Assembly: GCA_015501585.1 (NCBI GenBank)
Contig: JADNRY010000071.1
Coordinates: 62,001 to 126,000, forward strand
Direction of reading: 5' to 3'
Length of the DNA: 64,000 nt
Origin: Rhodocollybia butyracea
Lineage: Eukaryota > Basidiomycota > Agaricomycetes > Agaricales > Omphalotaceae
Positions 16,480 through 48,987 of this stretch are shown here, piece by piece. The position numbers were made by a program, and so were the translations under genes. Each line of letters begins with the position of its first letter. Within the stretch, counting starts at the first letter, position 1. The notes beneath the pieces were generated by a model. That model searched no databases and had not been told where the DNA came from. It saw nothing but the letters and a program-made list of their open reading frames with translations.

Positions 16480-19233
16480 ATGGCGAGTAACGGAGCGATT
16501 CCACCTCCTATACCAGAGATCCCCGAAGACCAGAAGTTCGACGGGGGAGTATGACTTGCATGGGCACCAATAGAACGAAAAATAAAAAATGCCCTAAAGG
16601 GACAAGGTCTAATTGGATATGTAGACGGTACTATTCCACGACCCCCTATAATCCCTGCTCCGAACCCTCCTGATCCTACTGCGCCCGCGCTCCTTCCTAC
16701 TCCCGTATACTCGTTGATTCCATCTCGCGAGGAATGGACATTCCGAAATGACCGCACAAAAGGGCTTGTGGAAGCGTATGTCTCAGACCTTCCATCTCTT
16801 GTCCCTACTGTCGACAAGATGAACGCGTTTGAAGTTCTGGAAGCCCTTACCAGAGAATTTGGACAGACCGACAAGATGAAAAAGGTTCACTCCATGCGCC
16901 GACTTCGAACTCATACTTTCCGTGATAATGAGGATATTGATGCCTTCTTCAAAACCTTCCGCGAGTTGAGGAAGGAAGCGATTGATGCGGGAAATGATGT
17001 ACCAGATGACGTCTTCAAGGACTTGGTTGTTGCTGCTTTCCCTACCGCGACGTTCGACACCATACTCCAAAATATCACTGCAAACCCCACTGCCTTCGCA
17101 AGTTCTTCCTCGGTTATCCAGCAGATCTCCTACCAGTATTCCCGGGTGAAGAACCGACCAGACAGTGCAGTGTCTGGTGACAGACTACCTCAGGCAAACC
17201 TCATTACTGCCCTTCAGACTCGTATCGAGCAGCTTGAGCGTGAGCGATATTTGGGTATTTACGTGTAGGTATGCGAAAGGTGCTATAAAACAACCTAACA
17301 AAAACACTACCGCACCTAACCAGACTATCGATATGTAAGGGAGCGAGGGCGGGTTGTCAGAGATTCCCCGAGGGAAAGCTTTGTAATATCGGATGTACGC
17401 GCGCGACTGCTCCAGGTTCAAGACTGTAGCGCTAACGTAGGTAACTAAGCTTAGACAACTCTTAGAACTAAGTCGAGAGAAGCCTAGTTGGGGTGTACGA
17501 GTGTACGAGGGAAACCAGATGTGTATGTCCAAATCAATTAACCAAAACCAAAACCAATACAACGAAACTAAGATTCTCCTAGGCAAACTCTGGCGCTAGC
17601 TAGAATAGTAATCTCGAGGTTTGTCAACAACCCTAGGCAAACTCTGGCACTAGCTGCTGTGACGCCGTAAAGTCCTCGACCAAACTCTGGGCCAAGCTAC
17701 GATATTGTGAGTGAACTTAATCACTAGGAACTCGTACCACAATCTTAGCGGCTCGTCTAACTTTGTGAAGAAGTCAACTAAGGAACCCTCACTCTGGAGC
17801 CAAATAATCCCTTACTAGAAGCCGTCCCCTCTAAGGAAGCAACTAGATTTGAGTTGATCTGGAGTTCGAGAGAACTCTACACACTTAAATTCGATCAAGA
17901 TATAAATGGGCTTTGCGAAGCGCGTGAAGTTTATTACTTTCTTAAGATAACCAAGTCAGGAGGCGTCACGCTACTGATCCCGTGGGGACGTTCTACGGAG
18001 CACTGGTCTTAGCAGTCAAGTCGAGGGCAAGAAACTTGTCTTATTGAATAAATATATCTGGCTTATATACTGAGTAGAGAGAGTTTAATACGAAAAATAG
18101 ACGAAACAGATACGGAGAGAGACGGAAAGAGAGTGGAACAGAGGAATCTGGCTCGGAAAGGAAACTCCAGCCTATATATGGTACACACGATAAAGAAATA
18201 GTCCATTCTTGGGTATATATCAGAGGTAAAATATGATTTCGTGAGGATTAACATAGTTTTAGAGTGTTTTGATCCGAGCGAGGTTTCTCCGATTACTCCA
18301 CAATTCTCCGGGGTCAGGAGTACCTTTGCGCTTCATGATCACTCGCCGCCCGGTTTCCCTTGGGTGAGTTTCATTCTATTCCTCGGATAGTTCTGTCCAT
18401 CCTGAGTGTGATTAACATTCTCTCGAGAAGGCCTGTTATCTAGCTTTCCAACAACACCACTTATGATAATCTCGAGCAACTGCGCTGAGTATGTACAAGT
18501 GATTCCCGATAGTCGGCTTTAACGGATAAGACCTCCCGTGTATGATTTCTAAGATCAAATGTTTCGATTTGCCAAGGCTATTCCGGCGCGTAGCTTTCCG
18601 TAGGACCGCTAAGTATGTTTCTACCGTCCTCACGGTTACGACCGGTGCCGCGAATAGACCTCTACGGTTTCCCTCGGGATTGTTCTGGTCCACTGTTACG
18701 GACTGTAAAGTCCACATCTTAACATAGCTCGTTGGGGGTCTTAGTGCGAGGGATGCCTTCCCTCGAGTAACGCGTTGGCTTAGTACTTATCCCGCTTCGA
18801 GATGTCCTGTAGTTTAGAGAGTCTACACTCTTTGGGTATAACTAGATTGACAATCTAGCGTTACATCTCCGGGCAGCCCAGGTATCCTCGCTAGCTTGGC
18901 TCTAGGCTACGCTTGTGGGCGTACCTTCACGGCTCGCTGAGTATTATTGTTAAGTTCTTTGCCTCGGCAACAGCTATCACGCTCGGGCTCCGTATAACTC
19001 TCTTATTGCATTGTATAACACGTACAAAGCGTCAAAATGTACGGTTACACGCCTTAGGCCGATTTTAGGCCTAATAGCGAGGTGGAAGCAGTGTGCCGAG
19101 ATTGAATGGAAAGAAGTGCACTAATCCAAATTGTCTACGAACTGGTCACCTTGCCGAGGAGTGTTTCCGAAGGGGAGGAGGAAAAGAAGGCCAGTCCCGT
19201 CATGGTGGAAAGGGAAGAAGGATACCGATACAC
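16480..19233 (+). pseudogene. Copia gag (interrupted by stop and by a nested element)
   Basis: The frame starts MASNGAIPPPIPEIPEDQKF at 16480 and meets TGA at 16552-16554. It then reads on as a gag with WAPIERKIKNALKGQG, EEWTFRNDRTKGLVEAYVSD and VDKMNAFEVLEALTREFGQT up to 17247. The nested element (17248-19076 plus a 4-bp duplication) splits it. The frame resumes exactly at 19081 with the zinc knuckle CTNPNCLRTGHLAEEC (from 19117), the CX4CX4HX4C form. It runs out of frame with the protease near 19215: a -1 shift is needed. Gag packages the element RNA. Confidence 0.8.
17248..19076 (+). mobile_element. Non-coding TATTTGGG/TATTAGG element, complete copy A, TSD GCGA
   Basis: 1829 bp, starting tatttgggtatttacg and ending ttaggcctaata, with GCGA on both sides (17244-17247, 19077-19080). 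The gag frame of Copia is continuous once the insert and one GCGA are ignored, which fixes the boundaries. Termini are weakly inverted (TATTtGG/TATTaGG), and a 7-bp palindrome (ttaggcc...ggcctaa) lies at the right end. It has no ORF of note. Related copies lie at 49-59 kb. Confidence 0.8.
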
Positions 19234-20287
19234 CTCTAGCGATCTCGAGTTTGAGTCCTGCTCCGGCTGCAAACTCAGCGGTGGTTGTTGGGGAGCTGAC
19301 CCAGCACTACACCCAGGCCTTGTTAGCATCTGAGAGCGGAATAGAAGGGGAAACTTACGCTGATTCAGGCGCGAGTGATCACTTCTTTTGTCACCGCTCG
19401 GACTTCCTCACCTATACGCCTTGCTCACGGTTAGGTGGATCGTCAGAGAAGTCGACTAGCCTTGCTATTGTAGGGACAGGAAAAGCTCAGAAAACTTTCT
19501 TGCACAAAGGAAATATGGTCACCATTACCTTCGAGGAAGCACTCCATACTCCGACAGTTTCCTCCAACCTTGTATCCATCTCCAAGCTCGATGCTAAAGG
19601 TGTAACAATTATCTTCGGGAATGGGGTAGCCAAATTTTACTCACCTCAGGGCGTTCACTTCTTGACTGGTCTTGGGGCTGGAGGACTGTACCACTTGCCA
19701 GAGCGAGTTAGTTCTGCTTTGGTCGTTCGATCCCAGACTCTGAATAAACCCGTGGATCTACAAGGATGGCACAAGTGTTTTGGCCATGCCGGCATCATGA
19801 GAATCCAGTTGGTGATAGCAAAAGGGCTACTTGATGGTCTTAATGTGGTTGGAAGTTGGAGAGATGAACAACCTGAATGTGACCCGTGCCATATTGGTCA
19901 AGCTAAGCGTCGCCCATTCGATGGCAGTAACGATGGAGAACGAAGACTGCTGGAGCGGGTTCATATCGACCTGACTGGACCGATGAGGACGAGAGCGATG
20001 GGAGGGTTCTATTACTCTATGCCCATTGTTGATGGGTGGTCCGCGATGGCAAGAGACTTCTACTTGGCCAATAAGGAATCAACCACGACCCTTGCTGCTT
20101 TGGTGAAATACAAGGCTTTAGCAGAGAAAGAAACTGGGGAGAAGTTGCTGTATGTGAGAGTTGATGGAGGAAAAGAATTTGGAAGTGATTTGTGGCGGAG
20201 CTGGGCCGATGAAAATGGCGTTAAGCTGGAAGTCATTCCTGCGTACTTGTCAGCCGCGAATGGCCTTGTCGAAAGGAAGCACGGTAT
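19131..20287 (+). pseudogene. Copia pol part 1: protease and integrase N-terminal part
   Basis: The frame contains the protease motif YADSGASDHFF (about 19363), the pre-integrase HHCC finger (WHKCFGHAG ... CDPCHIGQAKRRPF, about 19770-19920), and integrase core residues in ERVHIDLTGP, YVRVDGGKEFGSDLWRSW and ANGLVERKHG. It is cut at 20287 by a nested element. It continues at 22053 in the same frame after removal of the insert and its 5-bp duplication (GGTAT). The upstream gag lies in another frame. Confidence 0.85.
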
Positions 20288-22052
20288 TGTTGAACTTTAG
20301 ACCCGGGATATCCACAAAAGGACGCGAACAATAAACGACGACATGGTATTAAGACAAGCAAGTGATGTATCATGTGACTACGGACTGTAAACTATGTACG
20401 GCGTCTCGGCTCATACCAACACACCCCCAGAAACTATATTCATGAAGAGGGTAAAATGTCCAATGAGTTGAATCATATGATGACCGAAAACAGGAAAAAT
20501 GAAAAAGAATAATCAACTAAAAACCTTCGTACTCATCTGCTTCAATCTCACTTAATGTAGCGGCATCCACAGCATCCACAAAATTCAAGTCCTCAAGTGA
20601 ATGTGTGACACTGGAAATCCCCAACAATGACTTCCCTTTCTTCTTCTTCTTCTTCTTTTTAGCGCTACCTTGAGTAAAACCCATTGCCGCATGAGTGGGA
20701 GATGAAGGCGCAGATGAATCAGGAGTGAGGGTTGCAACATGGGCTTCTGATACAGTAACAGTGCTGAGCCATGCTTCACGCACCTCAGAAGACATGGTGT
20801 CCGGATAGATGGTGGATGGTAGATCCATAACCGCAAGAGCTTCGTGCTGATCTAAGGAGGCAGGTTCAGCCAAAAGCGCAACTTGCTTCAAATGATTACG
20901 GATAATGCCTTGGCGAACATCATCAGGCATTACTGATATGCAGTATTGAGCAAAGTGACCAGAGTGACCGCACCGATAGCAGACATCAGTCCGTCGCTTG
21001 GTGTTAGTCCAATCAAATTCCTGTGAGGGCCGAGTCGATGAGTTGGATGGAGAGTTGAACCGTGATGACTGTCAAGGACGGGATTGAGAAGTATAGTGCG
21101 CTTTGTCACTCTCACCCCCATGATTGGGAGAAGGCGGAGCGGGCACCCAATCACCCCCAGAACGCACAACCTTGATCAAGGAGTCTCGTTTCTGGAGGTC
21201 ACTAAGTTCCCAGGCGTTAATTGCAGTAATCATATCGGCGACCGATTTCTGAGGTGACTCATTCTGTAAAACCGTGATAATGGGACTGTAAGTAGCAGAG
21301 AGACCGCCCAAGACCTTATCCTGGACAAAGGACGCAGGAAGGGAGACAGCAATAGCATAAAGCTGACGTTCAATACTGAGCACCTGCTGGAGGAAGGCAT
21401 CGGCTGGCTTCATGATGTCATGAGTGATGGATTGGAATTGGGCCATGAGTGAAGAACGGGTAGCAGGATCAGACTGTGTATAGAAGGCGTCGAGCTGTGC
21501 CCAAAGGAGACGACCGCTGTTCGAAACACCTACATTGTCCACCTTGATACAGACATCAGGGCTTAACATGAGGTATAGTAGCCCATAAGCCTTCAGATTG
21601 TCACCTGTCCAAGCTCTAGCTTGTACAACACCTGTTGGAACCGGTACTGATGGGTCAATAGCGTTCCAGTACCCTCCTGCAAGCAATAAAGCTTGGGCCT
21701 GGCTCTTCCAAGTCCAGTAATTAGTGCCCGTGAGTTTAACAATGTCAGATGGTTTGACCATGATGGAATGAGAATATGGATGAGAGAGGATTGAGATAGA
21801 TGTAGCTGATCGTGGCAGCAGGCAATAGAAAGAGGATGCTGATTGTGACAGCAGGCAATAGGAAAAGACCTAGGTAATAATTGAGCAGCAAGGCAGTGGC
21901 TAACACTTGCCCATAACCTGTTGAACTTTAGACCCAGGATATCCACAAAAGGACGCGAACGATAAACGACGACGTGGTATTAAGACAAGCAAGTGATGTA
22001 TCATGTGACTACGGACTGTAAACTATGTACGGCGTCTCGGCTCATACCAACA
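20288..22052 (-). mobile_element. Gag-only LTR element (TR-GAG-like), TSD GGTAT, antisense in Copia integrase
   Basis: Two 134-bp repeats (20288-20421, 21919-22052) differ at three sites by eye and have TG...CA ends on both strands. GGTAT flanks both sides (20283-20287, 22053-22057). The internal gag is on the minus strand, so the element is reversed; next to its 5' LTR (minus strand, 21918 downwards) stands ggttatgggc, the same half-tRNA primer site as the host Copia. A polypurine tract (ctgggggtg on the minus strand) adjoins 20421. There is no pol. This matches the TR-GAG class, non-autonomous elements with only gag. Confidence 0.85.
20517..21761 (-). pseudogene. Gag of the TR-GAG-like element (one in-frame stop)
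   Basis: Reads from 21761 (MVKPSDIVKLTGTNYWTWKS, the usual start of Copia-type UBN2 gag) through LWAQLDAFYTQSDP and VLGGLSATYSPIITVLQNES. TGA at 21072-21074 interrupts it. The frame then continues with a CX2CX4HX4C knuckle (CYRCGHSGHFAQYC) and a tail with a run of eight Lys, ending at 20517. Zinc knuckle and UBN2 region both point to an RNA-packaging gag. One stop suggests recent decay, or mobilisation in trans. Confidence 0.8.
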
Positions 22053-24374
22053 GGTATTACCTTTGCCCACGTCCGCACTATCCTTTACGAATCAGGTCTC
22101 CCGCCATATCTATGGACATACGCCTGCGTGTACATTGTCTATACCGAAAATCTTCTTCCTACTGCGCGTACAGGACAGAAAATTCCTGCTGAGATGTGGT
22201 ACAGAAAGAGGATGGATGTGGCACACCTTAGACCATGGGGTGCCGTAGCTTGGGCGACTATTGTGGATGGTACTCCGGGCAAGTTAGATGCTCGAGGCTT
22301 CTCGGGAAGGATGGTTGGTTACGGCGAAAGGGGTGTTTATCTCCTCTACTTGCCGACGGGTCGAGTTGTAGCGAGCAGGGATGTGAGTTTTGACGAGAGA
22401 TTGCAGAGGTTATTGCCACCAGTTGGGGGAGAGGAAGAAGGCGACGGCGAGGTTGAGAATGAAACAGGAACTCAACATCTCGACAACAGCTTATCAACTG
22501 ATGCCAACAAACTCTTAACCCCTGATGCCAATACTGTGATCTCCGAGGACCCTGCCAATACTCAAATTGTCACGCAGCCACCTGCCCATCTTTGCCGCTC
22601 ATCTCGAAACAGAACTCCATCCGCTATGGCCAAGGCAAGCAAAGAATTTGAGCAAAGGGAGAAGACCGGGACCTCTCAGTGACTCGAATGGGCAACTAAC
22701 ACGAGAAGACCCAGGGCGAACTTTGCGGCACTCACAGAGAACTTACCAACAGACATTGACATGACATTCAATGTTGCACTTACAGCAATAGGCCTTCCCA
22801 CTGTCCCGAAATCTTACTCGAAAGCTATGGAAGACCCCGATAGGTGGAACCCAGCGATCCGAAAAGAGATACAGCGTATGGTGGAATTCGACGTCTTCGG
22901 TCCTCTTCAGGATGCACCACCAGGGGCAACTATCCTTAACCCGCTGTGGGTCTTCACACACAAGCTCAATGGTTCAGGGGAGATTGTCAATGAAAAGGCT
23001 CGCCTTGTGGTAAACGGAGGAACTCAAGTAGAAGGTGTTGACTTCTTTGAAGTATTTGCGGCAGTTCTCCGTTTCAAGTCTCTTCGGATCCTTATTGCGG
23101 TATGGATCTCATTGGGATATTTTATTTGGCAGATTGACTTCGCTTCCGCCTACCTGAACGCTGATATGAAGGAGGAAATGTATGTCCGACCTCCTGAAGG
23201 ATACAAGGGTTGAGGAAGTGGAAAGGTGATGAGATTGAAGAAGTTGCTCTATGGAAGTATGCAGGCAGGAAGGAACTGGTGGAAGATGTTGGATGCATCG
23301 TACAGGGATCTCGGGTATTACCGCTCACAGGCCGACCAGTGCGTGAGGACTCGGAAGTCGGACAAGGGCGAGACCATGACTGGGACCTATACCGACAATA
23401 CACTTGGAGGATTGTCCTCAAAAGAGGAGATGGAACTGGCAAAAGGGGAGATTGGGGAGAAGTATCGGATTAAGGAGACTGACACTGTTCATTTTGCACT
23501 CGGAATGAAACTCGTGCACGACAGGGATGCAGGAACGGCCACTCTTTCAATGCCGGGCTACTGGATTCAGCTTCTAACGAGATATGGCCTCCACGAACTC
23601 AAACCAAAATCGACGCCCTACCCTCCGGGACTCGTACTTTCGCTAGACCAGTGCCCGCAGAATGATGAAGAACACTTCTTCATGAAGGACAAGCCATTCC
23701 GGGAAATCTTGGGGGGAATTCAGTTTGGTCAAGGAGCTTGTAGAATGGATTTGGCTTTTGAGACAAATGACTTATCTAGGTTCTCGCAAAATCCGGGTCC
23801 TCCCCATTGGAACGCACTCGTCCATGTTTGCCGCTACATTGTAGGTACACTTGAACTCGGCTCCATCTACAAAAGGATGCCAGATGGACTTAAACCAAAG
23901 ACCTACTGCGATGCTAACCTCGCAGCCTGTACTGATACTCGTCGTTCAGTCACCGGAATAGTCACGACTTTGGCAGGTGGACCTGTATTCTGGATGTCAA
24001 AGAGGCAGGATGTTGTGGCGCTCTCTACTACAGAATTGGAGTATATCGCTTACGGGAAGGGTGCTCAGCAGGCGAAGTGGGTGCATAATTTCCTCTCTGA
24101 AATCGGACATGCTCCATCCCTTCCTTCTGACCTCTTTGCTGATAACAAAAGTGCAATCGCCATCTCAGAAAATCCAAAATTTCATCAGCGAGTGAAGCAC
24201 ATCGATATCCGCTTTCACTTCTTAAGGGACTTGGTCGAGTCAGGGGAGATTAAAATTCATTATGTGCCGTCGGAGGACAACTTGGCGGACATTCTTACGA
24301 AGCCGTTGGGAGCGACTCTTCACAGGAGGTTAGTTGAATTGCTAGGGATGAGCAACGGCAATGCGCGCGACTAG
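22053..24374 (+). pseudogene. Copia pol part 2: integrase C-terminus, reverse transcriptase, RNase H
   Basis: A single frame with two TGA stops (22680-22682, 23211-23213). Integrase C-terminal part: TILYESGLPPYLWTYACVYI, HLRPWGAVAWATI. RT: IWQIDFASAYLNADMKEEMY (first catalytic Asp), LKKLLYGSMQAGRNWWKMLD, and GTYTDNTLGG in place of the xxDD catalytic pair, where Asn replaces the second Asp. RNase H: YCDANLA, VALSTTELEYIA, DNKSAIAI, VPSEDNLADILTKPL. It ends at 24374, six bases before the 3' LTR. The YTDN change should abolish RT activity. Confidence 0.88.
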
Positions 24375-28536: not shown

Positions 28537-31500
28537 TGTCATGCCCTAGGCATATACAGACTGCCGACGTTTCCCGCTTACTGTTACATAACCCGCTTCC
28601 GCCGCATTTCCGGTTCCGATACACTTCCACTTTGCTTCCGTTTTACCTTTTCCTTCACTGTACACTTTCTATGATCCTGTCGATCCATTCTCCATCATTC
28701 TTACAATCATACATATGCTTTATGCTCATCCCGCTGCTTCCGCTTATGTTCATTGTTGTCTTTCATCCCTTATACTTCTTTTGGCTATTCTTGTCTTTTC
28801 TACTCTCAGATTATTACCTATCGCTACTCCGGTCCTCGAGTACCCTTTAAATAGTTCTGTACCATGTCAAGTACAGTAGATTGGAAATATTGCTTAACCC
28901 CTTGACTCGTGTGCTCTTGTGTGTTCCGGTTTCTCGCTTTATCTGTTTCTTTAACTCTGTTTCTTCACTCCATCGTTTTCACAACCTCTGCAATTTACTA
29001 TCATCTATTTGGTTCCGCTCTGTTTGCGCCGCATCAGGTCAGCTACCGCTTGACCTTCCGCTTCCGCTCATATCGCTATCAAAGCCGCTTGCACTTAGTG
29101 GGTCCTACCCTTCGAGTCGGAAACTCATCTACTCTTAGGCTTACTTGCCAAGTTCATTCTATCGCCTGTACGGACCTGCCATCCCTACATTAGTCCCTTG
29201 GACGATCCCAACTCGAGTCTTACATCCCATAGGCACTTCAGAACCATTCTACACTCACATCCTTTCACATCTCAAACCAACTTTCCCAGTTCGGCTGAAC
29301 AACAGAAGTACGGAGTGTATCCACACTTTGGTTTCCAGGTTCGTAACCCGCGCTTGAAGGATTCCGCCTAGATCCTTACATTATTTCCAATCTAACCCCC
29401 GACTACGGATTGTTGGGAGCAAGATAGGATACGTGAAAGGATGAGGAGTGTCATGGTTTACTATGACGATGAACCCATCGACAGTAGGTTGCTTCCGCAG
29501 TCCCGCCCGACTTCGCGGATTCCGCCATCACCAGCTACAACTATGGATTTATGGTTACAGGGCCCGCCACGCATCCCTTATGAGTCGAAACCTAGGAGGT
29601 TGATACCACCTGCTTTGGGTCTTGACAGCGCAGCAAACAATTCACAGAGTGTGCCCATGCACTCCGTCTATTCTGGTTCCATGGGTAATACACATGGAAA
29701 CTCTTGGGAGACCTCGCCTCTTAGTGCTGGTAGGCTCCCAGGTACAGTCACTTCACTCCCTTCACCTCAGATGTCCGCCTTCAGCTTGGGGAATAGTCCT
29801 CCAATGATGTCATCACAATCCAAACCTGTTTTTGATCCCGACTTGGATGATGCCAAATACATCCAGCCACCTCAGGAAGCCGCCTGGGTACCCATTCCAT
29901 CCTTTACATGTCGCATAATACCGCTCAGCCATCCCAGATACCCGCTGTACATTTTGAAGATGGTAAAGTAGGTATGGGGGGAAACGGTATGCACCGACAT
30001 TGGGACTCAATTCGGGACTCCAGGGACCCGCTTGGACGCCCATATCGGTCGCTTATGCATCAGGTAGTGTCACCTGGACTCCGCAGGGTTCCGCTCCAAA
30101 TTTGGGGAAGGATCAACTTGGTACAGGGGGGAGACGTGACTACTCAACCTATGGATATGACCCTGGACCTCCCGGATCCGCCAGAACGTCCAAATCATCT
30201 CTGTATGTGCCGCATTATATTGCGCAAACTCCCCAGTCATTTGCCGCAGGTTCAGGAAATAGTGAAGTGGTATGGGGAGATACACAATGCATTATTTCTG
30301 ACTCAACCCGTCACCTCAGGGACCCGCTATAGGGCCAAACCCATTCGCCTATGCACCAGGTAGCGTCGTAGGGCCTCCCCAGGAACCCGCCGGAAGTATT
30401 AGGAATAACGGTATTGGTACTAGGGGGATACAGGAATATTTTGCATCCCAATACAACCAGGGATCTCAGGAACCCGCCAGGGCGTCCAATCTAGCTCCTT
30501 ATGTGCCGCATTATGTCGCGCAAACTCCCCAGACTTTTGCTGCAGGTTCTGGGAATACTGAAGTGGGTATGGGGGAGATCCAGGATACATTTACCTCTGG
30601 GCTTACCCCGGGACTTCTGGGATCCGCTGTGGGGCCCAAACAATTCGCTTATGCATCGGGTAACGTCGTAAGGCCTCCCCAGCAACCCGCTGGTAGTATT
30701 GGGAATATTGGAACAGGTAGGGGGCAGGTACTGGTACACCCAGGGACGGAAATTTTTGCAACACCTCCGGGACTCGCGGGAGCTCAAATAAACCTCCTTA
30801 CGCTTCGAACAACGTCTCTCGACCATCCCGACGTTCCGCATTGAGCTCAAGGGATTATGGACCCAGTAGGGGGCAGATACAGGCAGAATTAGAGACGGAA
30901 AGGATCTGGGGACCTCAGGCCACCACTAATGGCCCCAAGCGAGCCCATTTCACTCCAAAGGATAATAGTATAAGCCGCATTGATTCCGCTTCAAAGGTGA
31001 CCCCCAATCGACCCACTACTGTACCACCCACCCATCCCCCTACCCCATATCCAACTTCTTTGCCCAGGGAAACTCCGAATTTGTGTCCGAACCCAATCAG
31101 ACATACTACCCAACGTATTCGGCGACAGGACGCATGTGGTAGCACTCCTGTAGGAGCTCCCAGGAGACCCAGCGGGATAGCAGGGGGACAAAATACTGGT
31201 TTGGCTATGGAAACTTCCGGGCCATTGACGGATGACTTAGGTGATGGAAATGGCTTCGGAAATGCAGGATCTCGACGCGACGGGTATCCCGACCCACCAG
31301 GACCATCCCATCCCCATCCAACTTTTGCACCACCACTTGGCCAACCTGGAGCGGCATATATATTCTACCCACCAAATGACTGGATTCCCTTTGCGATTCA
31401 GCAGCGGAACTTAATGGGAGGTAATTGGAACTCAATTAACACAGATACCTCAGCTGCAGATGACCGCCGATTCCGACTTTTATTGGAGTCAAAACTCGAC

Positions 31501-33219
31501 ACGGCGGAACCAGAGTACTTTACGGGGGAGTCTAAAGATGCTTGGCTGCCATGGATCTCATCCTTGAAAAGGATCTTCAAGGCAAAGCCAACAATCTACG
31601 AGGTTCCGCAGAGTCGTGTTGCATATGCTTGCTCCTTTGTACAAGGTAGCGCCAGTTCTCATTATGACAATCTGGTACAGATGGAGCAATCCCGAGGAGA
31701 GGATGTTTCCGCACTACACGAGTGGAATTCATTCATACAGGAGTTCCAGGTTCGGTTTGGAATATTTAATCCGACTATAGATGCTCAGTCACGGTTGGAT
31801 GACATCCACCAGGAGGAGGGAGAAGATTTCGCAGCATTTATAATTCGGTTTGAGGAACTTGCATTCCGAACTGAATATAATGAACCTGCACTGATCAATC
31901 GACTTCGGAAGACGGTAGTACCATGGTTAGATCTTAATATTTCAGCGCAACCCGGCCGCCCTCAGACACTCTCGGAATGGACATACCGCTACCAGGACTT
32001 GGATGCGGCATGGAATCAGCAGATTAGGAGTCGGATGAATGTATCCAATGACTTGGAGCCACCCTTAGATTCCGAAAATAACTTCCAACTTGACTATGTC
32101 AATCCGCCAATATCATCAATGGATGATTTTGCTAACGGAGAACTTGATCTCACACCACAGGATGATGTGCAAATTTCCTGGGACCCGGGATAACACCCGC
32201 CGTTGAGTACTTCATCTATTTGTCTATTTTTTCTGTTCAACTTTTGGTTCCGACAAATTTTATCTTTTCCGTTGGCGCCTGCCATCTATGTTCTTAAATG
32301 TTTTATTTATGTTTTCAACTACTTACATGCTGGGCCTAGCGTCTCCTTGCGGGCTCGGAGCTTGAAGGGGGGTAATGTCATGCCCTAGGCATATACAGAC
32401 TGCCGACGTTTCCCGCTTACTGTTACATAACCCGCTTCCGCCGCATTTCCGGTTCCGATACACTTCCACTTTGCTTCCGTTTTACCTTTTCCTTCACTGT
32501 ACACTTTCTATGATCCTGTCGATCCATTCTCCATCATTCTTACAATCATACATATGCTTTATGCTCATCCCGCTGCTTCCGCTTATGTTCATTGTTGTCT
32601 TTCATCCCTTATACTTCTTTTGGCTATTCTTGTCTTTTCTACTCTCAGATTATTACCTATCGCTACTCCGGTCCTCGAGTACCCTTTAAATAGTTCTGTA
32701 CCATGTCAAGTACAGTAGATTGGAAATATTGCTTAACCCCTTGACTCGTGTGCTCTTGTGTGTTCCGGTTTCTCGCTTTATCTGTTTCTTTAACTCTGTT
32801 TCTTCACTCCATCGTTTTCACAACCTCTGCAATTTACTATCATCTATTTGGTTCCGCTCTGTTTGCGCCGCATCAGGTCAGCTACCGCTTGACCTTCCGC
32901 TTCCACTCATATCGCTATCAAAGCCGCTTGCACTTAGTGGGTCCTACCCTTCGAGTCGGAAACTCATCTACTCTTAGGCTTACTCGCCGAGTTCATTCTA
33001 TCGCCTGTACGGACCTGCCATCCCTACATTAGTCCCTTGGACGATCCCAACTCGAGTCTTACATCCCATAGGCACTTCAGAACCGTTCTACACTCACATC
33101 CTTTCACATCTCAAACCAACTTTCCCAGTTCGGCTGAACAACAGAAGTACGGAGTGTATCCACACTTTGGTTTCCAGGTTCGTAACCCGCGCTCGAAGGA
33201 TTCCGCCTAGATCCTTACA
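28537..33219 (+). mobile_element. Gag-only Gypsy-type LTR element, TSD ATATC
   Basis: LTRs of 844 bp (28537-29380, 32376-33219; TGTCATGCC...CCTTACA) differ at about five sites, all transitions, by eye. ATATC flanks both sides (28532-28536, 33220-33224). A purine tract (gaaggggggtaa) precedes the 3' LTR. The interior has only gag-type coding and no protease, RT or integrase, so the element needs help in trans. Confidence 0.88.
29441..32193 (+). pseudogene. Gypsy gag with long repetitive N-terminal region, frames broken
   Basis: The 3' part (30841-32193, 450 residues) is the clear gag: EYFTGESKDAWLPWISSLKR, EWNSFIQEFQVRFGIFNP, EEGEDFAAFIIRFEELAFRT, the usual F.G....W...l and W..F...l..rF pattern. 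The 5' part (29441-30844) is Pro/Gly/Ser-rich and spread over three frames. It is built from at least three imperfect repeats of about 300 bp (VPHYIAQTPQSFAAGSGN and relatives at about 29905, 30205 and 30500). Frameshifts between repeats indicate decay. No zinc knuckle was seen. Confidence 0.7.
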
Positions 33220-40420: not shown

Positions 40421-42086
40421 ATGCTTCTCCCTGCACTCTCCCCAGGCGAGCTCTCCAAACGCATAGTCGATATCCAACTGGAGCTTCACCAGCCCACATA
40501 CACTGGTCGACCAAACGAAAACATCACCACCTTCCTCGACTCGATCGAACACAACAGTCGAAGACTTAATATTCCTCCAGTCCAATGGGTAGATGTGGCG
40601 TTGTACTTCATGGTTGAGATCGTTCGAAAAGTTATGCAAAAATACAAGGAAAATATTCTACGTTCAAAGAAGACCAACGATAACCTTTGGGAGGTGTTCA
40701 AATCGGTTTTGAAAGGATTGCACGGTATGTACGCCACTCGAGGTACTTTGAGTCGCATCTGACTGTACTTCTTCATCGTACAGACAACGCTGTACAGCAG
40801 TGTAAGCGTTGTATTTCATACACATTGAACTCTTACTCAACGACCCAGCCATTCTTAGTCTCACTGATACCTTGTCAGTGGTCCAAAACCTTCGAGCTTG
40901 CTGTCGAACGACTTGGAGTCCAGTCGCGAGACTGTCAGACATCATGTTGCGTCGAATCTCAATACCTTGTCAGTGGTCCAAAACCTTCGAGCTTGCTGTC
41001 GAACGACTTGGAGTCCAGTCGCGAGACTGTCAGACATCATGTTGCGTCGAATCTCAATGCACGCAATGTACAGTTGCTTTGAACTTTGAAGTACATACCA
41101 TGATCTTAATACTGTCCTATTTGTTGTGCTAGTACTTAAGAGTACTGCTTAGTAGGGAGCTCGTAAGTGCATGCAAGTTAAACAGATCAGTATTGGGATT
41201 AGGATATTTGATAGTTGTCTGATCATCCTAGATAATTACCTACAGTTAAAACTTTGAGAAAATGATCTTTGCGGGTTCAGAACTGATTGCAGGTTGACCA
41301 TAATTATTCTTGTGGGTCATATTGAGATGCGAGTAAAGAGAATTATCAACCGTAGATTTTATTCATGAAAAATCTCGTGTAATGATTTGATGTGGATGAA
41401 ATCTGGTAAAATCATTCCCAAGAGCTCATTTACAAATGTAATTTCAACCAATAATTTTTCTTAGGTTGTAAACGGTTATTATGCTGTGCAAGCACAGGTA
41501 ATTATCTCTTGATCTTGCGATTCGTGAAATCTCAAATGACGTTTCCCCTGATTTAGTGATGCAATTGGCGATGGGCGTCAGGACCCAAACTGTGATTTAT
41601 TTCTTGAAGCTGCTGCTAAAGGTGTAGCTGTCGCAGGGGTGACATATGCCGTAGGACCTGTTGTAGTTCTTGCAGCACTGAATACTGTTGGATTCACAAG
41701 CTCTGGAGTACTTGCTGGTATGAAGTTTGTTTGCTCTATAACGAAATAACAGCCTCATGTAAGCTGCATGTCGATTCGTTTTCTCAGGATCCGCAGCTGC
41801 CAGTGTGCAATCGCTCATCTATGGCGGGAGTACCGGTGGTCTTTTCTCTGTGATGCAATCTATCGGTGCCACAGGTGTAGTGGCATCTGTTCCGGTTCTT
41901 GGATTGGCTGCTGGGGTTGTAGGCCTTGCTGCTGCTGGAGCTTACTTTATTCGAAATCGCTCACGTCGATCACCGAGCTCTAGTCTGGAAGAAGTTGATG
42001 AAGATCCCGAGCATGAAATCTACCTTGATGACGGCGGACTTTTGGATCATGGAAAGGCCGCTCAAGGACGTCGAGACTCGTTCTAA
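40421..42086 (+). CDS. ISG12/IFI6-like protein, copy 3 (exons intact, one intron enlarged)
   Basis: Exon 1 (40421-40724) opens MLLPALSPGELSKRIVDIQL and carries the gag-like domain (YTGRPNENITTFLDSIEHN, VQWVDVALYFMVE). Exon 2 is the micro-exon 40784-40801. About 700 bp of foreign sequence then splits the start of exon 3. Exon 3 resumes at about 41567-41717 (LEAAAKGVAVAGVTYAVGP, GFTSSGVLAG) and exon 4 is 41788-42086 (GGSTGGLFSVMQSIGATG, PVLGLAAGVVGLAAAGAYFI), ending with a basic then acidic tail (RNRSRRSPSSSLEEVDEDPE). The ISG12 domain has two membrane-embedded small-residue segments. The only acceptor I see next to the resumed exon (41556) gives the wrong frame, so this copy may also be non-functional. 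Confidence 0.6.
40861..41560. repeat. Insertion inside copy 3 with a 95-bp direct tandem repeat
   Basis: Sequence absent from copies 1 and 2. It starts with two apparently identical 95-bp units (40867-40961, 40962-41056; each begins ataccttgtcagtggtcc), followed by about 500 bp of AT-rich unique sequence. No clear target duplication was found. Confidence 0.7.
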
Positions 42087-43730: not shown

Positions 43731-46700
43731 ATGTCTGAATCTAATCCTAGGTAAGGTTTTAGCAATCGTCATTTCGCAGTCACTACTCTAATGCTAATTA
43801 TCTTGATTAGAGAGCAGCAAGGTCAACTTTTTGCCAGAGATCGCAGAGATCGCAGGTAAGGCTTTGATATTGTCTCGCAGTCACTATTCCAGCGCTAACC
43901 ATCGTGAATAGAGAGCAACAAGACAACCCCAGGCCGGCCCAGATAGGGAGGCAGGTAAGTGTAACTCGCAGAGTCGCACTGTTTCCTAAATCCAGCTTAC
44001 ACTTTAATAGCATATTTGCAAATTCTTCCGACTTAAAATTCATAAACTCGCAATTTTTTGCAGCAAACAGCATTCACTACCATACCTGGAGTAAGTCCTT
44101 GCTGTCTGTAGTATGTACTTTCCTTTTTTTCCCTTTGACACTTGCATTGTAGATATCAATGATGCATTGGATATCCAGAATTGGTTAAAAGCACCCAGAC
44201 CCTCTGAAAATTATGTGGCAGCATGTGATAAGAGAACACCTGGAACTGGAGATTGGATACTCTCTCATCCACAATTTACTCAATGGTGCCAGGGTAAGCC
44301 TGGAATGTTATGGATACAGGGCAAAGGTAACAATTTCTCTCTACTACAATTGGACAGTAATCTGAGCAAATTATCTAGTTGGATCTGGAAAAACAGTGCT
44401 CTCGTAAGTCTGAAGGAGTCCTTATACCTGCTACATGTAATTTTCTTGGTTCCATTTAGTGCTGCTATCATTGAAAAATTGGAAAATAATCCAGCAGTAA
44501 TGTGTTGCTATTACTATTTTGACAACCGGGATAGGTTGAAGACAGATGCTCGAGGCCTCCTGCAATCACTTTTGTTGCAGATGGCCACAAGGACTGAAGG
44601 GGTGCATCCTGCCTTGCATGAGCTGTATACAAAGTGCAAACAAGGTGTCAAGGATCCTACAACAAAGGATTTGAGTGCAACTCTTGTAGCAGTTGCTAAG
44701 GATTTGAGACCTGTTTTCCTTGTCCTGGATGCAATGGATGAATGTAGTGAGGTAACTGGTGTGTTCAAACATCTTGCTCTTCTTAAGAGGAACCTCTGCA
44801 TAGCTGTAACCAGCCGATATTTGGCTGAGACTGGTTATGGTGTCTCCTGGTATATTTACCTTGATGACACACCATTTTTTCGTCAGGATGTTGCAAATAC
44901 CTGCAGGAAAAATTCAGCAATCGAAAACTGAAACCAGAACTATCCACAGAAATAGTGGATTATTTGACTGAGGGTGCTCAGGGGCAGTAAGTGATACAGA
45001 ATCATTGCATGATTGGACTGATAACTAATTGGACATGAACAAAGGTTTCGTTGGATTGACTGCCAAGTAACTGTGTTGCAGCGACTTAAAACACCTAAAG
45101 CCATCCGGGATGCACTGAAGAAATTGCCCAATTCCTTAGAGGAAACATACACTCAGGCCTTTGAAAGAATGAGAGAAAGTGAACATGTGCATGATGCAGG
45201 CAGACTTCTTATGTGGTTGGCCTATGGGTTTGAACCACTCTCAATTGGACAGGTTACAGATATTCTTGCTGTAGACCTAGAAGCTCAAAAATTTGACCTT
45301 GAATTGCGGTCATTGGAGCTTGAGAATGGGACCTATGATATCTTAGACTCCACATTGATTACCATCAGTATGTCTGAAAGCCTTTTGGGAGCATTCTTGG
45401 GTGACAACAAAATTGTTCAGCTGGCACACAATTCTGTCAAGGAGTTCCTCACTCAGAGTCACAGCCAAAATCAATTTAGTGAGCTAATTGAAATCAATGA
45501 GCACCTGGCCCATTCTATAATATGTCAAACATGCCTTGTGTATCTATTGTATTTTGACTCACCAATCAAGTCATCAATAATATATATATATAGGGATTAT
45601 CCTTTAGCACAATATGCTGCAAAGCATTGGCCACTGCATATGGAAAGGCTAGAAAACAGAGTGTCTGAATACAAACCTGCTAAGGTCCTAGCAATAATGC
45701 TCTTGAAAGAGGGAAGTCAGCAGCCATATGTGAACTGGATCAAAATCCATCAGCCAGATATGAACTGGATTCAAATTCATTGGCCAGAGAGTGATTATCT
45801 CAGCCACAATAATCCACTGTTGGAACCAAGCAAAATATCAACTCCGCTGTATTATATGGCTTTTGTGGGTTTGTCATCTGTTGTTGAGTATTTACTAGTG
45901 GAAAACAAGGTAGATGTAGATGCCCAAAAGGGTATACATGGGGGTGCACTCCAGGCAGCTGCCTGTAAGGGAAACAAGGAGATTGTCCAGCTTCTTCTGG
46001 ATCACAATGCAGATGTAAATGTTCAAGGGGGATTTTTGGGAATGCACTCCAGGCATCTGCCTGGATAGGAAGGAGAGATATTGTCCAGCTTCTTTTGGAC
46101 TACAAAGCAGATGTAAATGCTCAAGGGGGAGAGTATGGGAATGCACTCCAGGCAGCTGTCTACAGAGATAAAAAGGACATTGTCCAGCTTCTTCTGGATC
46201 ACAAAGCAGATGTAAATGCCCAAGGGGGAAATTATGGAAATGCACTCCAAGCAGCTGCCTTCAAGGGAAGGAAAGATACTGTCCAGCTTCTTCTGGATTG
46301 CAAAGCAGATGTAAATGCTCAAGGGGGAGAATATGGGAATGCACTCCAGGCAGCTGCCTACAAGGGAAGAAAACATATTGTCCAGCTTCTTCTGGAGCAC
46401 AAAGCAGATGTAAATGCCCAAGGGGAAGATATGGGAATGTACTTCAGGCAGCTGTCCATAGAGAAAACATCTGGCATCATATGAAGCATTATACTCAACA
46501 GGTAGAGTATGGCCATTCACTCAAGGCAGCTGTCTACAGAGAACACAAGGCCATTGTCCGGATTCTCCTGGAGCACAAAGCAGATGTAAATGCCCAAGGG
46601 GAGAATATGGGAATGCACTCCAAGCAGCTGCCTACATAGGAAGGAAAGATATTGTCCAGCTTCTTCTGGATCACAAAGCAGATGTAAATGCCCAAGGGGA

Positions 46701-47956
46701 GAGCATGGGCATGTACTCCAGGCAGCAGTCCACAGTAAAAACCAGGACATTGTCCAGCTTCTTCTGGATCACAAGGCAGATGTAAATGCCCAAGGGGGAA
46801 AATATGGAAATGCTCTCCAGGCAGCTGTCCACAGTGAAAACAAGGACATCATCCAGCTTCTTCTTGATCATAAAGCAGATGTGAATGCCCAAGGGGGAGA
46901 GTATGGGAATGCACTTCAGGCAGCTACCCACAAGGAAAGGAAAGATATTGTCCAGCTTCTTCTGGAGCACAAAGTAGATGTAGCTGCCCAAGGAGAAAAA
47001 TATGCACTCCTGGCAGCTGTCTACAGAGAAAACAAGGATATTGTGAAGCTTCTTCTGAAGAACAAAGCAGATGCAAATACCCAAGGAGGAAAATATGGGA
47101 ATGCACTCCTAGCAGCTGTCCACAGAGGAAACAAGGATATTGTCCAGCTTCTTCTGGAGCACAAAGCAGATGCAAATGACCAAGGTGGGTATCATGGGAA
47201 TACAGCAGTCCACAGAGAAGACAAGGATATTGTCCAACTTCTTCTGGCTGACAAAACAGATGTGAGTGCACAAGGGGAGAAGTATGGGAATGCACTACAG
47301 GTAGCCGCCTACAAGGGAAGGAAAGATATTGTTCAGCTTCTTCTGGAGCACAAAGCAGATGTAAATGCTCAAGGGGGAGAGCATGGGCATGCAATCCAGG
47401 CAGCTGTCTACAGAGACAACAAGGACATTGTCCAGCTTCTTCTGGATAACAAAGCAGATGTAAATGCCCAAGGGGGAAAATATGGGAATGCACTCCAGGC
47501 AGCAGCTGTCCATAGTGAAAACAAGGACATTATACAGCTTCTTCTGGAGCATAAAGCAGATGTAAATTATCAAGGGGGAAAATATGGGAATGCACTCCAG
47601 GCAGCTGCCTACAAGGGAAGGAAAGGTATTGTCCAGCTTCTTCTGGAGCATAAAGCAAATGTAAATGCCCAAGGGGGAATATATGGGAGTGCACTCCTGG
47701 CAGCTGTCCATAGAGAAGACATCTGGCCTCATATGAAGCATGATACTCAACAAGCAGAGTATGGCCATTCACTCCAGGCAGCTGTCCAGAGAGAAAACAA
47801 GGCCATTGTTCAGATTCTGCTTGAGCACAAAGCAGATGTAAATGCCAATGGGGCTGAGTATGGAACTGCACTCCAAGCAGCTGCCTACAAGGGAGGAAAG
47901 ATATTGTCCAACTTCTTCTGGATCACAAAGCAGAGGTAAATGCTCAAGAGGGAGAG
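43731..47956 (+). pseudogene. NACHT-ankyrin (NLR-like) protein, frameshifted and truncated
   Basis: Small exons (43731-43750, 43811-43855, 43912-43954) encode a charged N-terminus (REQQGQLFARDRRDRR, EQQDNPRPAQIGRQ); splicing to 44153 is unresolved. ALDIQNWLKAPRPSENYVAA then leads to the NTPase. The Walker A loop GKVGSGKT forms only after removing introns 44327-44378 and 44404-44459. Walker B is FLVLDAMDEC (about 44720). A winged-helix-like region follows (LKKLPNSLEETYTQAFERM, LLMWLAYGFEPLSIGQVTDI). From about 45840 come around 20 ankyrin repeats of 33 residues, nearly identical at DNA level. A missing base near 44902, several shifts at 46036-46700 and a solo LTR at 47957 break it. Role of the family: non-self sensing and cell death in fungi. 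Confidence 0.8.
45840..47956 (+). repeat. Ankyrin-encoding ~99-bp tandem repeats
   Basis: Around 20 units share gacattgtccagcttcttct, gcagatgtaaatgcccaag and gggaatgcactccaggcag. The similarity between units is high, implying recent expansion or homogenisation. Each unit carries a G4-G5 run (caaggggga) where single-base losses occur. Confidence 0.85.
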
Positions 47957-48149
47957 TGTTATGACTCGATCAATAGTCTTGTCCAAACCTTCACAGTACG
48001 TAACTCGGTGGTAACAATGATAAGAGAAATTAATGGAGATTATAGAGCAAGCCTTTCCGTTTGATGAAACCGCTAGGCAAAAAATATATACTCAAACAAC
48101 TAGGCTCAAGTAAAGTTAGTAACTAGTTTGTAATACGAAACTCACAGAA

Positions 48150-48464
48150 GTTATTATTTGGAGATAGCTCGACAAATAATAATAAGATTACCCTCGGAGA
48201 TGGCTCAACAAGCAGTAATATGAATCAGAACTAATACTCGGAGATGGCTCAACAAGTAGTAGTGAGTGTGGTGTCTAATACTCGGAGATAGCTCAACAAG
48301 TAATAGGAAGTTGCAACTCGGAGATAGCTCAACAAGTGGCAATTGAAGAAGTATTCACTAGGAGATAGCTCAACAGGTGAATGTTAGTGGATACAACTTG
48401 GAGTTAGCTCAACAAGATGTATAAATGTGTATTGTAGCTTGGAGATAGCTCAACAAGATACAAT
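48150..48464. repeat. Array of eight 34-nt hairpins with conserved loop and variable stems
   Basis: Each unit is a 9-base arm, a 16-base loop close to YGGAGATAGCTCAACA, and a 9-base complementary arm. Units start at 48150, 48186, 48230, 48274, 48310, 48351, 48390 and 48431, with 2-10-base spacers. Arms differ from unit to unit but remain largely complementary (for example gttattatt/aataataat, gtattcact/ggtgaatgt, attgtagct/agatacaat). Unit 2 is the least regular and needs a bulge. Confidence 0.85.
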
Positions 48465-48607
48465 GAGTTGGTCTGGTGATTCACACAAGTGATAACAGCA
48501 AACAAGTGGGGGTTTGGATTTAAGAAAAATAATACGTCTACCGTACATTGGTAAATCTGGCTTCCTTATATACTGTTTAATATGTACTAGTTAGGAAATG
48601 CTGCAGA

Positions 48608-48798
48608 ATGACTAGATTTGAGTCATAACTGCGGAAATGCTGCGGATCAGTCAGCATGACTGTGGAATGGTGTGCAATGACTGTTACTGAGTCATTTAAG
48701 CGGAACTGCGGATGACTGATGTTGAGTCATTCAGTAGAGTCATGGATGACTGATATTGAGTCATTTAGTGGAACCGGAGTTGACTAATAATGAGTCAA
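48608..48798. repeat. Second hairpin array, ATGACT-N7-AGTCAT, five units
   Basis: Units at 48608-48626, 48676-48696, 48712-48730, 48746-48764 and 48780-48798. Four have ATGACT/AGTCAT arms; the last has TTGACT/AGTCAA, a compensating pair of changes. All contain TGAGTCA, the Gcn4/AP-1 type site, so protein binding is an alternative to RNA folding. Confidence 0.7.
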
Positions 48799-48987
48799 TA
48801 CTGTGTGGAAGGGTCTTTGCAGCTTCCATGGTAATGTGCAGCATTATCCGAAGTTGTGTTGAGAAGATAAGTAATGAATGTATGTGATAGTGTTAAGTGG
48901 TAAAATATTAATGATAGTAGTGGTTGTTAATAAATGAAAAAAGAGTGTGTATATGCCTATAGTGTAGAATCGGGTCATAACAGAGAG

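What the first reader, a model, noticed from the sequence alone, without database searches (positions are those of the whole stretch)
48150..48464. Eight tandem hairpins with a conserved loop and covarying stems
Within 315 bp there are eight units of 9-base arm, 16-base loop and 9-base arm. The loop (YGGAGATAGCTCAACA) is nearly constant, but the arms differ between units and still pair: gttattatt/aataataat (8 pairs plus G-U), actaatact/agtagtagt (8 of 9), gtattcact/ggtgaatgt (6 plus 3 G-U), attgtagct/agatacaat (8 of 9). Maintained pairing with changing sequence is the signature of selection on structure, or of hairpin-templated correction. I know of no LTR element or RNA family with this design. 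It could be an RNA packaging or processing array, a protein-binding structured repeat, or a replication feature.
Basis: seen in the sequence. Interest (0 to 1): 0.88.

Follow-up and report, generated by a model that had tools for sequence, protein, structure and literature searches.

The report
Hairpin array in a retrotransposon leader
The eight hairpins are real and lie near the start of the RNA made by a fungal jumping gene that seems to prime its own copying, so they probably serve as a row of docking sites for packaging or copying that RNA.

Summary
The array is real and exactly where reported: eight 34-nt units whose arms differ between units yet pair. Pairing of own arms is the best of all 40,320 re-pairings; 13 both-sided pair changes against 5.0 in shuffles. 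It lies in a 1,026-bp solo LTR (window 47957-48982, 5-bp target duplication) of a high-copy Ty3/gypsy chromovirus, whose RNA sense is the window's MINUS strand, opposite to the strand read. In that sense the LTR has a TATA box, then 12 nt complementary to the bases just after the 5' LTR (a Tf1-type self-priming site), then the array, and no AUG in 583 nt; gag starts about 30 nt after the LTR. Folding predicts that the self-primer helix encloses the array. Between one autonomous and two gag-only elements the leader is 97-98% identical, U3 63-72%, early gag 80-91%. Against tight selection on each hairpin: covariation is between units of an array, with only one double change seen between copies, and non-pairing chimeric units are propagated. 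Best reading: a modular multivalent cis-acting RNA element recognised by Gag or reverse transcriptase. The element's identity is well supported; the function is inferred.

The parts
47957..48982 (-). Solo LTR of the Ty3/gypsy chromovirus; sense position 1 = window 48982
   Evidence: Repeat boundaries 47957 to about 48983 shared by copies; TG...CA ends and flanks; sense from gag-pol of the C481 element
47952..47956 (.). Target site duplication GAGAG, left copy
   Evidence: Read from sequence
48983..48987 (.). Target site duplication GAGAG, right copy
   Evidence: Read from sequence
48540..48982 (-). U3 (promoter part), sense 1-443
   Evidence: Bounded by the inferred RNA start
48608..48797 (-). 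Five TGACTCA sites with inverted AGTCA partners (Gcn4/AP-1-like; name recalled)
   Evidence: 5 observed, 0.11 expected in shuffles
48566..48572 (-). TATA box TATATAA, sense 411
48528..48539 (-). Inferred RNA start and self-primer AGACGTATTATT, sense 444-455
   Evidence: Perfect 12-nt complement of the bases at the 5' LTR border in full elements
48511..48518 (-). Helix P2, 5' strand TCCAAACC
   Evidence: Pair probability 0.95-0.98 in the 9 elements folded
48431..48464 (-). Hairpin unit 8 (first in the RNA)
48390..48423 (-). Hairpin unit 7
48351..48384 (-). Hairpin unit 6
48310..48343 (-). Hairpin unit 5
48274..48307 (-). Hairpin unit 4
48230..48263 (-). Hairpin unit 3
48186..48219 (-). Hairpin unit 2 (pairs with a bulge)
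48150..48183 (-). Hairpin unit 1 (last in the RNA)
47982..47989 (-). Helix P2, 3' strand GGTTTGGA
47957..48539 (-). RNA leader part of the LTR (R-U5, 583 nt), no ATG
   Evidence: 0 ATG, shuffles mean 9.0, 0 of 2000 shuffles without ATG

Best explanation
SHOWN: the array is part of the LTR of a Ty3/gypsy chromovirus, between the inferred RNA start and the LTR end, sense on the minus strand of the window. INFERRED WITH GOOD SUPPORT: the element self-primes like Tf1; the first 12 nt of its RNA pair with a binding site roughly 580-700 nt downstream, and the hairpins (mostly 8-12 per copy) lie inside the loop so closed. INFERRED, the mechanism I think most likely: the constant loop, UGUUGAGCYAUCUCC, is a recognition motif shown many times over on stems whose own sequence matters little. 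Gag (it has a CCHC zinc knuckle) or Gag-Pol binds the array as a multivalent signal that selects this RNA for particles, and the compacted leader helps bring the 5' self-primer to its binding site. Redundancy lets units be gained, lost and scrambled, probably by template switching. The leader behaves as a cassette shared by autonomous and gag-only elements with different U3, probably through co-packaging and strand transfer at the RNA 5' end.
For: Family and sense: gag with zinc knuckle, RT, RNase H, integrase, chromodomain and Tf2-1-like SH3 lie on the strand opposite to the array as read. Start site: TATA begins 33 nt before the self-primer; 0 ATG in the 583-nt leader, 9.0 expected, 0 of 2000 shuffles; 43 of 45 rows of copies have none (about 36 distinct LTRs; only copies with exact end motifs were counted); first ATG 31 nt after the LTR end in 11 of 13 distinct elements, 26 nt in 2 (14 rows, L020 and L056 being the same). 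Self-priming: 12-nt complement at the 5' LTR border in the three full elements looked at without preselection (L048, L056, L058) and exact in 39 of 46 LTR rows. Structure: own-arm pairing best of 40,320; covariation score 0.337 against 0.146, 0 of 500 shuffles; the loop-closing U-R pair holds in 7 of 8 units and only in the sense strand; array MFE z -3.14 sense, -1.83 antisense; in 9 of the 13 elements, all that I folded, P1 0.95-0.96, P2 0.95-0.98, and 6-8 of 8-10 hairpins above 0.5. Cis role: leader 97-98% identical between an autonomous and two gag-only elements with U3 63-72% and early gag 80-91%.
Against: Within the 9-bp arms G-U pairs favour the other strand (7 against 1), the other strand also passes the permutation test, and its total MFE is lower (-75.9 against -70.0). 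Between copies one double change only; 3 of 8 widely shared arm changes break a sense pair. A chimeric unit that pairs only 2-3 bp next to the loop is carried in many copies (16 of 645 units; 33 chimeras in all). Leader identity can come from recombination rather than selection. Not every hairpin forms in the full fold (6 of 10 in L034). 7 of 46 LTR rows have a changed self-primer, among them the 5' LTR of the C481 element. Six cousin 3' regions show no trace of the array. No transcript, binding or packaging data.
Confidence: 0.6

Rival explanations
1. RNA architecture only: the hairpins compact the long leader so that the 5' self-primer meets its binding site; the loop is conserved by recent spread or recombination, not because a protein reads it.
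For: P1 and P2 close around the array in the 9 elements folded; unit number varies freely, 8-12 in most complete arrays.
Against: 13 of 16 loop columns 10-25 are invariant over 8 units whose arms have diverged; cousin C506 has a short leader and needs no array (LTR ends judged by eye).
Confidence: 0.17
2. Translational or RNA-fate element of the 5' UTR bound by a host protein (scanning control, localisation, stability).
For: The leader is free of ATG and gag starts just after it, so ribosomes appear to scan through the hairpins; single hairpins are weak, -6.4 to -10.0 kcal/mol.
Against: Does not explain why it lies inside the self-primer helix; no specific support.
Confidence: 0.12
3. DNA-level array: binding sites or cruciforms in the LTR, or hairpin-templated correction of DNA.
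For: G-U counts in the arms do not favour the sense RNA (7 against 1); complementarity itself is strand-neutral.
Against: Array lies downstream of TATA in an ATG-free leader; U-R closing pair works only in sense RNA; mid-stem mismatches and chimeric units stay uncorrected in many copies.
Confidence: 0.07
4. Neutral minisatellite whose pairing is left over from how units arose, with no present function.
For: Chimeric, non-pairing units propagate; between-copy compensation is nearly absent.
Against: Units with unlike arms all pair best with their own partner; 5 of 8 widely shared arm changes fall on positions already unpaired (tally made after seeing the data).
Confidence: 0.04

Closest known systems
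Tf1/sushi self-priming LTR retrotransposons (Tf1, Tf2, Tj1)
   Same: Ty3/gypsy with chromodomain; RNA 5' end complementary to a binding site at the 5' LTR border; at least one further helix beside it. Tj1 and the 'pretzel' structure were seen as passages of PMC4600332 and PMC10085805.
   Different: Leader of about 580-750 nt holding tandem hairpins with a constant loop; the passages I saw mention no such array. The third pretzel duplex was not found here.
Multiple dispersed packaging signals of RNA viruses (MS2 and others)
   Same: Many stem-loops sharing one recognition motif with variable surroundings (passages of PMC6281560).
   Different: Here clustered head to tail in a leader, not dispersed; protein binding not shown.
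Ty1/Ty3 leader and packaging elements
   Same: Cis-acting 5' leader in the RNA of an LTR retrotransposon, Gag recognition presumed (passages of PMC4974528).
   Different: Ty1 and Ty3 use a tRNA primer; packaging sequences are said there not to be precisely defined; no tandem array in the passages seen.

Membership tests
Ty3/gypsy chromovirus | gag, then RT-RNase H-integrase, chromodomain at the integrase end | tested here: met
   Pfam on L056 ORFs: Retrotrans_gag, zf-CCHC, RVT_1, RT_RNaseH, Integrase_H2C2, rve, SH3_Tf2-1, Chromo. The window copy itself is a solo LTR without genes
Tf1/sushi self-priming group | Primer binding site complementary to the 5' end of the RNA instead of a tRNA | tested here: met
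   12-nt perfect complement at the 5' LTR border, beginning 33 nt below TATA; the RNA 5' end is inferred, not mapped
Tf1/sushi self-priming group | Three-duplex 'pretzel' structure | tested here: inconclusive
   Self-primer helix and one flanking helix in the 9 elements folded; no third helix with 60 nt downstream, and nested folding cannot show a pseudoknot
Tf1/sushi self-priming group | Phylogenetic place inside the clade | not tested
   No tree built; among the 120 of 7934 relatives listed, agaricomycete names occur
Tf1/sushi self-priming group | RNase H cleavage of the RNA 5' end to make the primer | not testable with these tools
   Needs RNA from particles
Multivalent RNA packaging signals | Several stem-loops with a common motif and free stems | tested here: met
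Multivalent RNA packaging signals | Binding by Gag/coat protein and need for packaging | not testable with these tools
   Only a CCHC knuckle in gag is seen
Described RNA families (Rfam 15) | Match above a family's gathering score | tested here: not met
   0 matches in the window

The most novel reading that the evidence does not exclude
A self-priming retrotransposon has evolved a tandem, expandable cassette of packaging/priming hairpins with one read-out loop; gag-only elements exploit the autonomous ones by carrying the same leader, and the cassette is traded between families as a unit when co-packaged RNAs exchange strong-stop DNA at the RNA 5' end.
Probability: 0.35. Interest if true: 0.75.

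Novelty: new variant of a known kind. Interest (0 to 1): 0.6.

Why it matters
How LTR retrotransposons mark their RNA for packaging is poorly defined (PMC4974528, passages). Here the candidate signal would be visible by eye, repeated 8-12 times, with a constant loop and free stems, so it can be synthesised, probed and deleted. It would also show how a leader can travel as a module between autonomous and gag-only elements, and how a self-primer works across several hundred nucleotides.

Tried and rejected
Rfam: no match. tRNA genes: none in the window; a tRNA fully complementary to the loop: pattern with up to 2 mismatches gave 21 places, the best with 1 mismatch, none perfect, so tRNA binding by the loop was dropped. 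Loop motif elsewhere: exact 20-mer absent from viral contigs; one hit in a Vibrio contig in genome contigs, taken as chance. Metagenomes and other fungal genomes could not be searched. Cousin elements: of the relatives listed, six 3' regions were fetched; none matches the LTR or loop. LTR starts were picked by eye in L059, L063 and L064, not found in L060-L062, so absence is weak for those three. Other arrays of this design: in 319,243 bases (79 sequences: window and loci, 8 unneeded or overlapping loci left out) 71 sequences carry the known family and one other (L061) has an ordinary repeat with like arms. Gag N-terminal 760-800 residues: no Pfam match, no homolog at E 1e-3, so no reader domain was identified. 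One search, and the line on the C481 leader, are void: the script did not find the changed self-primer of that copy. One search left out L001-L008, L016, L020 (duplicates), L031 (without need) and L085. Papers: searches listed nothing whose title or abstract describes such an array; only openly licensed PMC papers are covered, and the original Tf1 papers were not held.

Full report
What is there. The eight units are exactly as located. Arms of one unit fit each other better than arms of other units: 54 of 72 Watson-Crick pairs is the maximum over all 40,320 permutations, and summed hairpin energies lie at the extreme on both strands (sense -67.0 against -38.0, fraction 5e-5; other strand -57.4 against -33.7, fraction 2.5e-5). 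On the alignment of the eight units 83.9% of cells pair (shuffles 72.7%, slid structures 36-47%), 13 cells have changes on both sides (5.0 in shuffles) and the covariation score is 0.337 (0.146); 0 of 500 shuffles reach any of these three; pairs with both-sided change (6 against 3.6, 18 of 500) are less extreme and further pair types (11 against 10.0, 187 of 500) do not differ.

What carries it. A search of the window's own genome (95.6 Mb, 1,381 contigs) gives a repeat with sharp ends at window 47957 and about 48983; 40 of 467 candidates were scored. The ends are TG...CA with a 5-bp duplication GAGAG, inside a gene with NACHT-like and ankyrin domains. So this is the LTR of a Ty3/gypsy chromovirus, and the window copy is a solo LTR. 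Protein relatives include agaricomycete fungi (Lentinula 72%, Termitomyces 64%; 120 of 7,934 listed); that the host is an agaricomycete is an inference.

Anatomy in RNA sense (minus strand). U3 holds five TGACTCA sites (0.11 expected). TATATAA begins at 411; AGACGTATTATT at 444 is the perfect complement of the bases just inside the 5' LTR border. That border was seen without preselection in three elements (L048, L056, L058); the 20 junction rows were found with a pattern that already demands part of the motif. The self-primer is exact in 39 of 46 LTR rows, rows overlapping. From 444 to the LTR end there is no ATG (9.0 expected, 0 of 2000 shuffles), and the first ATG comes 31 nt after the LTR in 11 of 13 distinct elements, 26 nt in two. 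In C481 this ATG opens the 1,148-aa gag frame; in several other copies the frame is broken. This fixes the sense and the likely RNA start, and makes the array part of the RNA leader.

Structure of the leader. In the 9 elements that I folded, of 13, the 12-nt self-primer helix (P1, mean pair probability 0.95-0.96) and a second helix (P2, 0.95-0.98) close around the array, and 6-8 of 8-10 hairpins have a pair above 0.5. The array is more stable than dinucleotide shuffles in sense (z -3.14) than in antisense (z -1.83), though the antisense MFE itself is lower. In sense the stem extends through a U-R and a G-C pair into the loop; R is A in three and G in four of eight units, both pairing with U, which the other strand cannot do. 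Against this, the 9-bp arms hold 7 G-U pairs on the other strand and 1 in sense. Five units (3, 4, 5, 7, 8) have a mid-stem pyrimidine-pyrimidine mismatch in sense and unit 2 a bulge.

Evolution. Of 645 units in 71 loci, 545 are native, 33 chimeric (left arm of one, right arm of another) and 67 unclassified, stray matches included. Sixteen of the chimeras are one type, carried by many copies of a subfamily. Of eight arm changes shared by three or more copies, five fall on positions already unpaired and three break a sense pair (tally made after the fact). Unit number is 8-12 in most complete arrays, fewer in some subfamilies, and one copy (L046) has the binding site followed by a jump into the array, as template switching would give.

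The leader as a module. Between the autonomous C481 element and two gag-only elements the leader is 97.1% and 98.4% identical, U3 62.9% and 72.2%, the first 1,050 nt of gag 90.7% and 80.2%. One gag-only protein (L048) is 53% identical to gag at its N-terminal part and 41% at its zinc-knuckle end, with the capsid domain not detected. The break at the RNA 5' end is what strand transfer between co-packaged RNAs would produce. This fits a leader that must be recognised in trans, but recombination alone could also make it uniform.

Mechanism. I think the loop is read by Gag or Gag-Pol, many times over, to pick this RNA for particles and help the self-primer meet its site. Shown: position, sense, pairing, shared leader. 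Inferred: RNA start, self-priming, protein reader, packaging. Rivals are a pure scaffold, a 5' UTR control element, a DNA element and a neutral minisatellite.

Comparison. Self-priming in Tf1 and Tj1 and the three-duplex 'pretzel' are known (passages of PMC4600332 and PMC10085805). Two of the three duplexes are predicted here. Many stem-loops sharing one motif are known as packaging signals in RNA viruses (passages of PMC6281560). I saw no description of a tandem hairpin array in such a leader in searches, which cover openly licensed papers only. Hence: new variant of a known kind.

Noticed in passing
window 48608-48797 (minus strand): Second repeat in the same LTR: five TGACTCA sites about 34 nt apart (one gap of 69), each followed by an inverted AGTCA, upstream of TATA; looks like a Gcn4/AP-1-type activator array (name recalled).
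   Followed up: partly
window 44113-47939: Gene with NPHP3/NACHT-like and many near-identical 99-bp ankyrin repeats; the LTR is inserted at its 3' part in opposite sense.
   Followed up: no
L046, around 1414 (strand +): LTR end and self-priming site followed directly by a jump into the hairpin array: looks like a reverse-transcription template-switch product.
   Followed up: no
L048:3436-5685 (strand -): Gag-only element whose 749-aa protein keeps the gag N-terminus and zinc knuckle but has no detected capsid domain.
   Followed up: partly
L056:1924-4323 (strand +): Gag carries about 780 residues before the capsid domain with no Pfam match and no homolog found at E 1e-3.
   Followed up: partly
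window 40867-41058: Perfect 95-bp tandem duplication.
   Followed up: no
window 19131-24374 and 30841-32193: Fragments of a copia-like element (integrase, RVT_2) and of another gag (Retrotrans_gag).
   Followed up: no
L061:1854-2300: Tandem repeat with hairpin-forming units of like arms near a cousin element.
   Followed up: no
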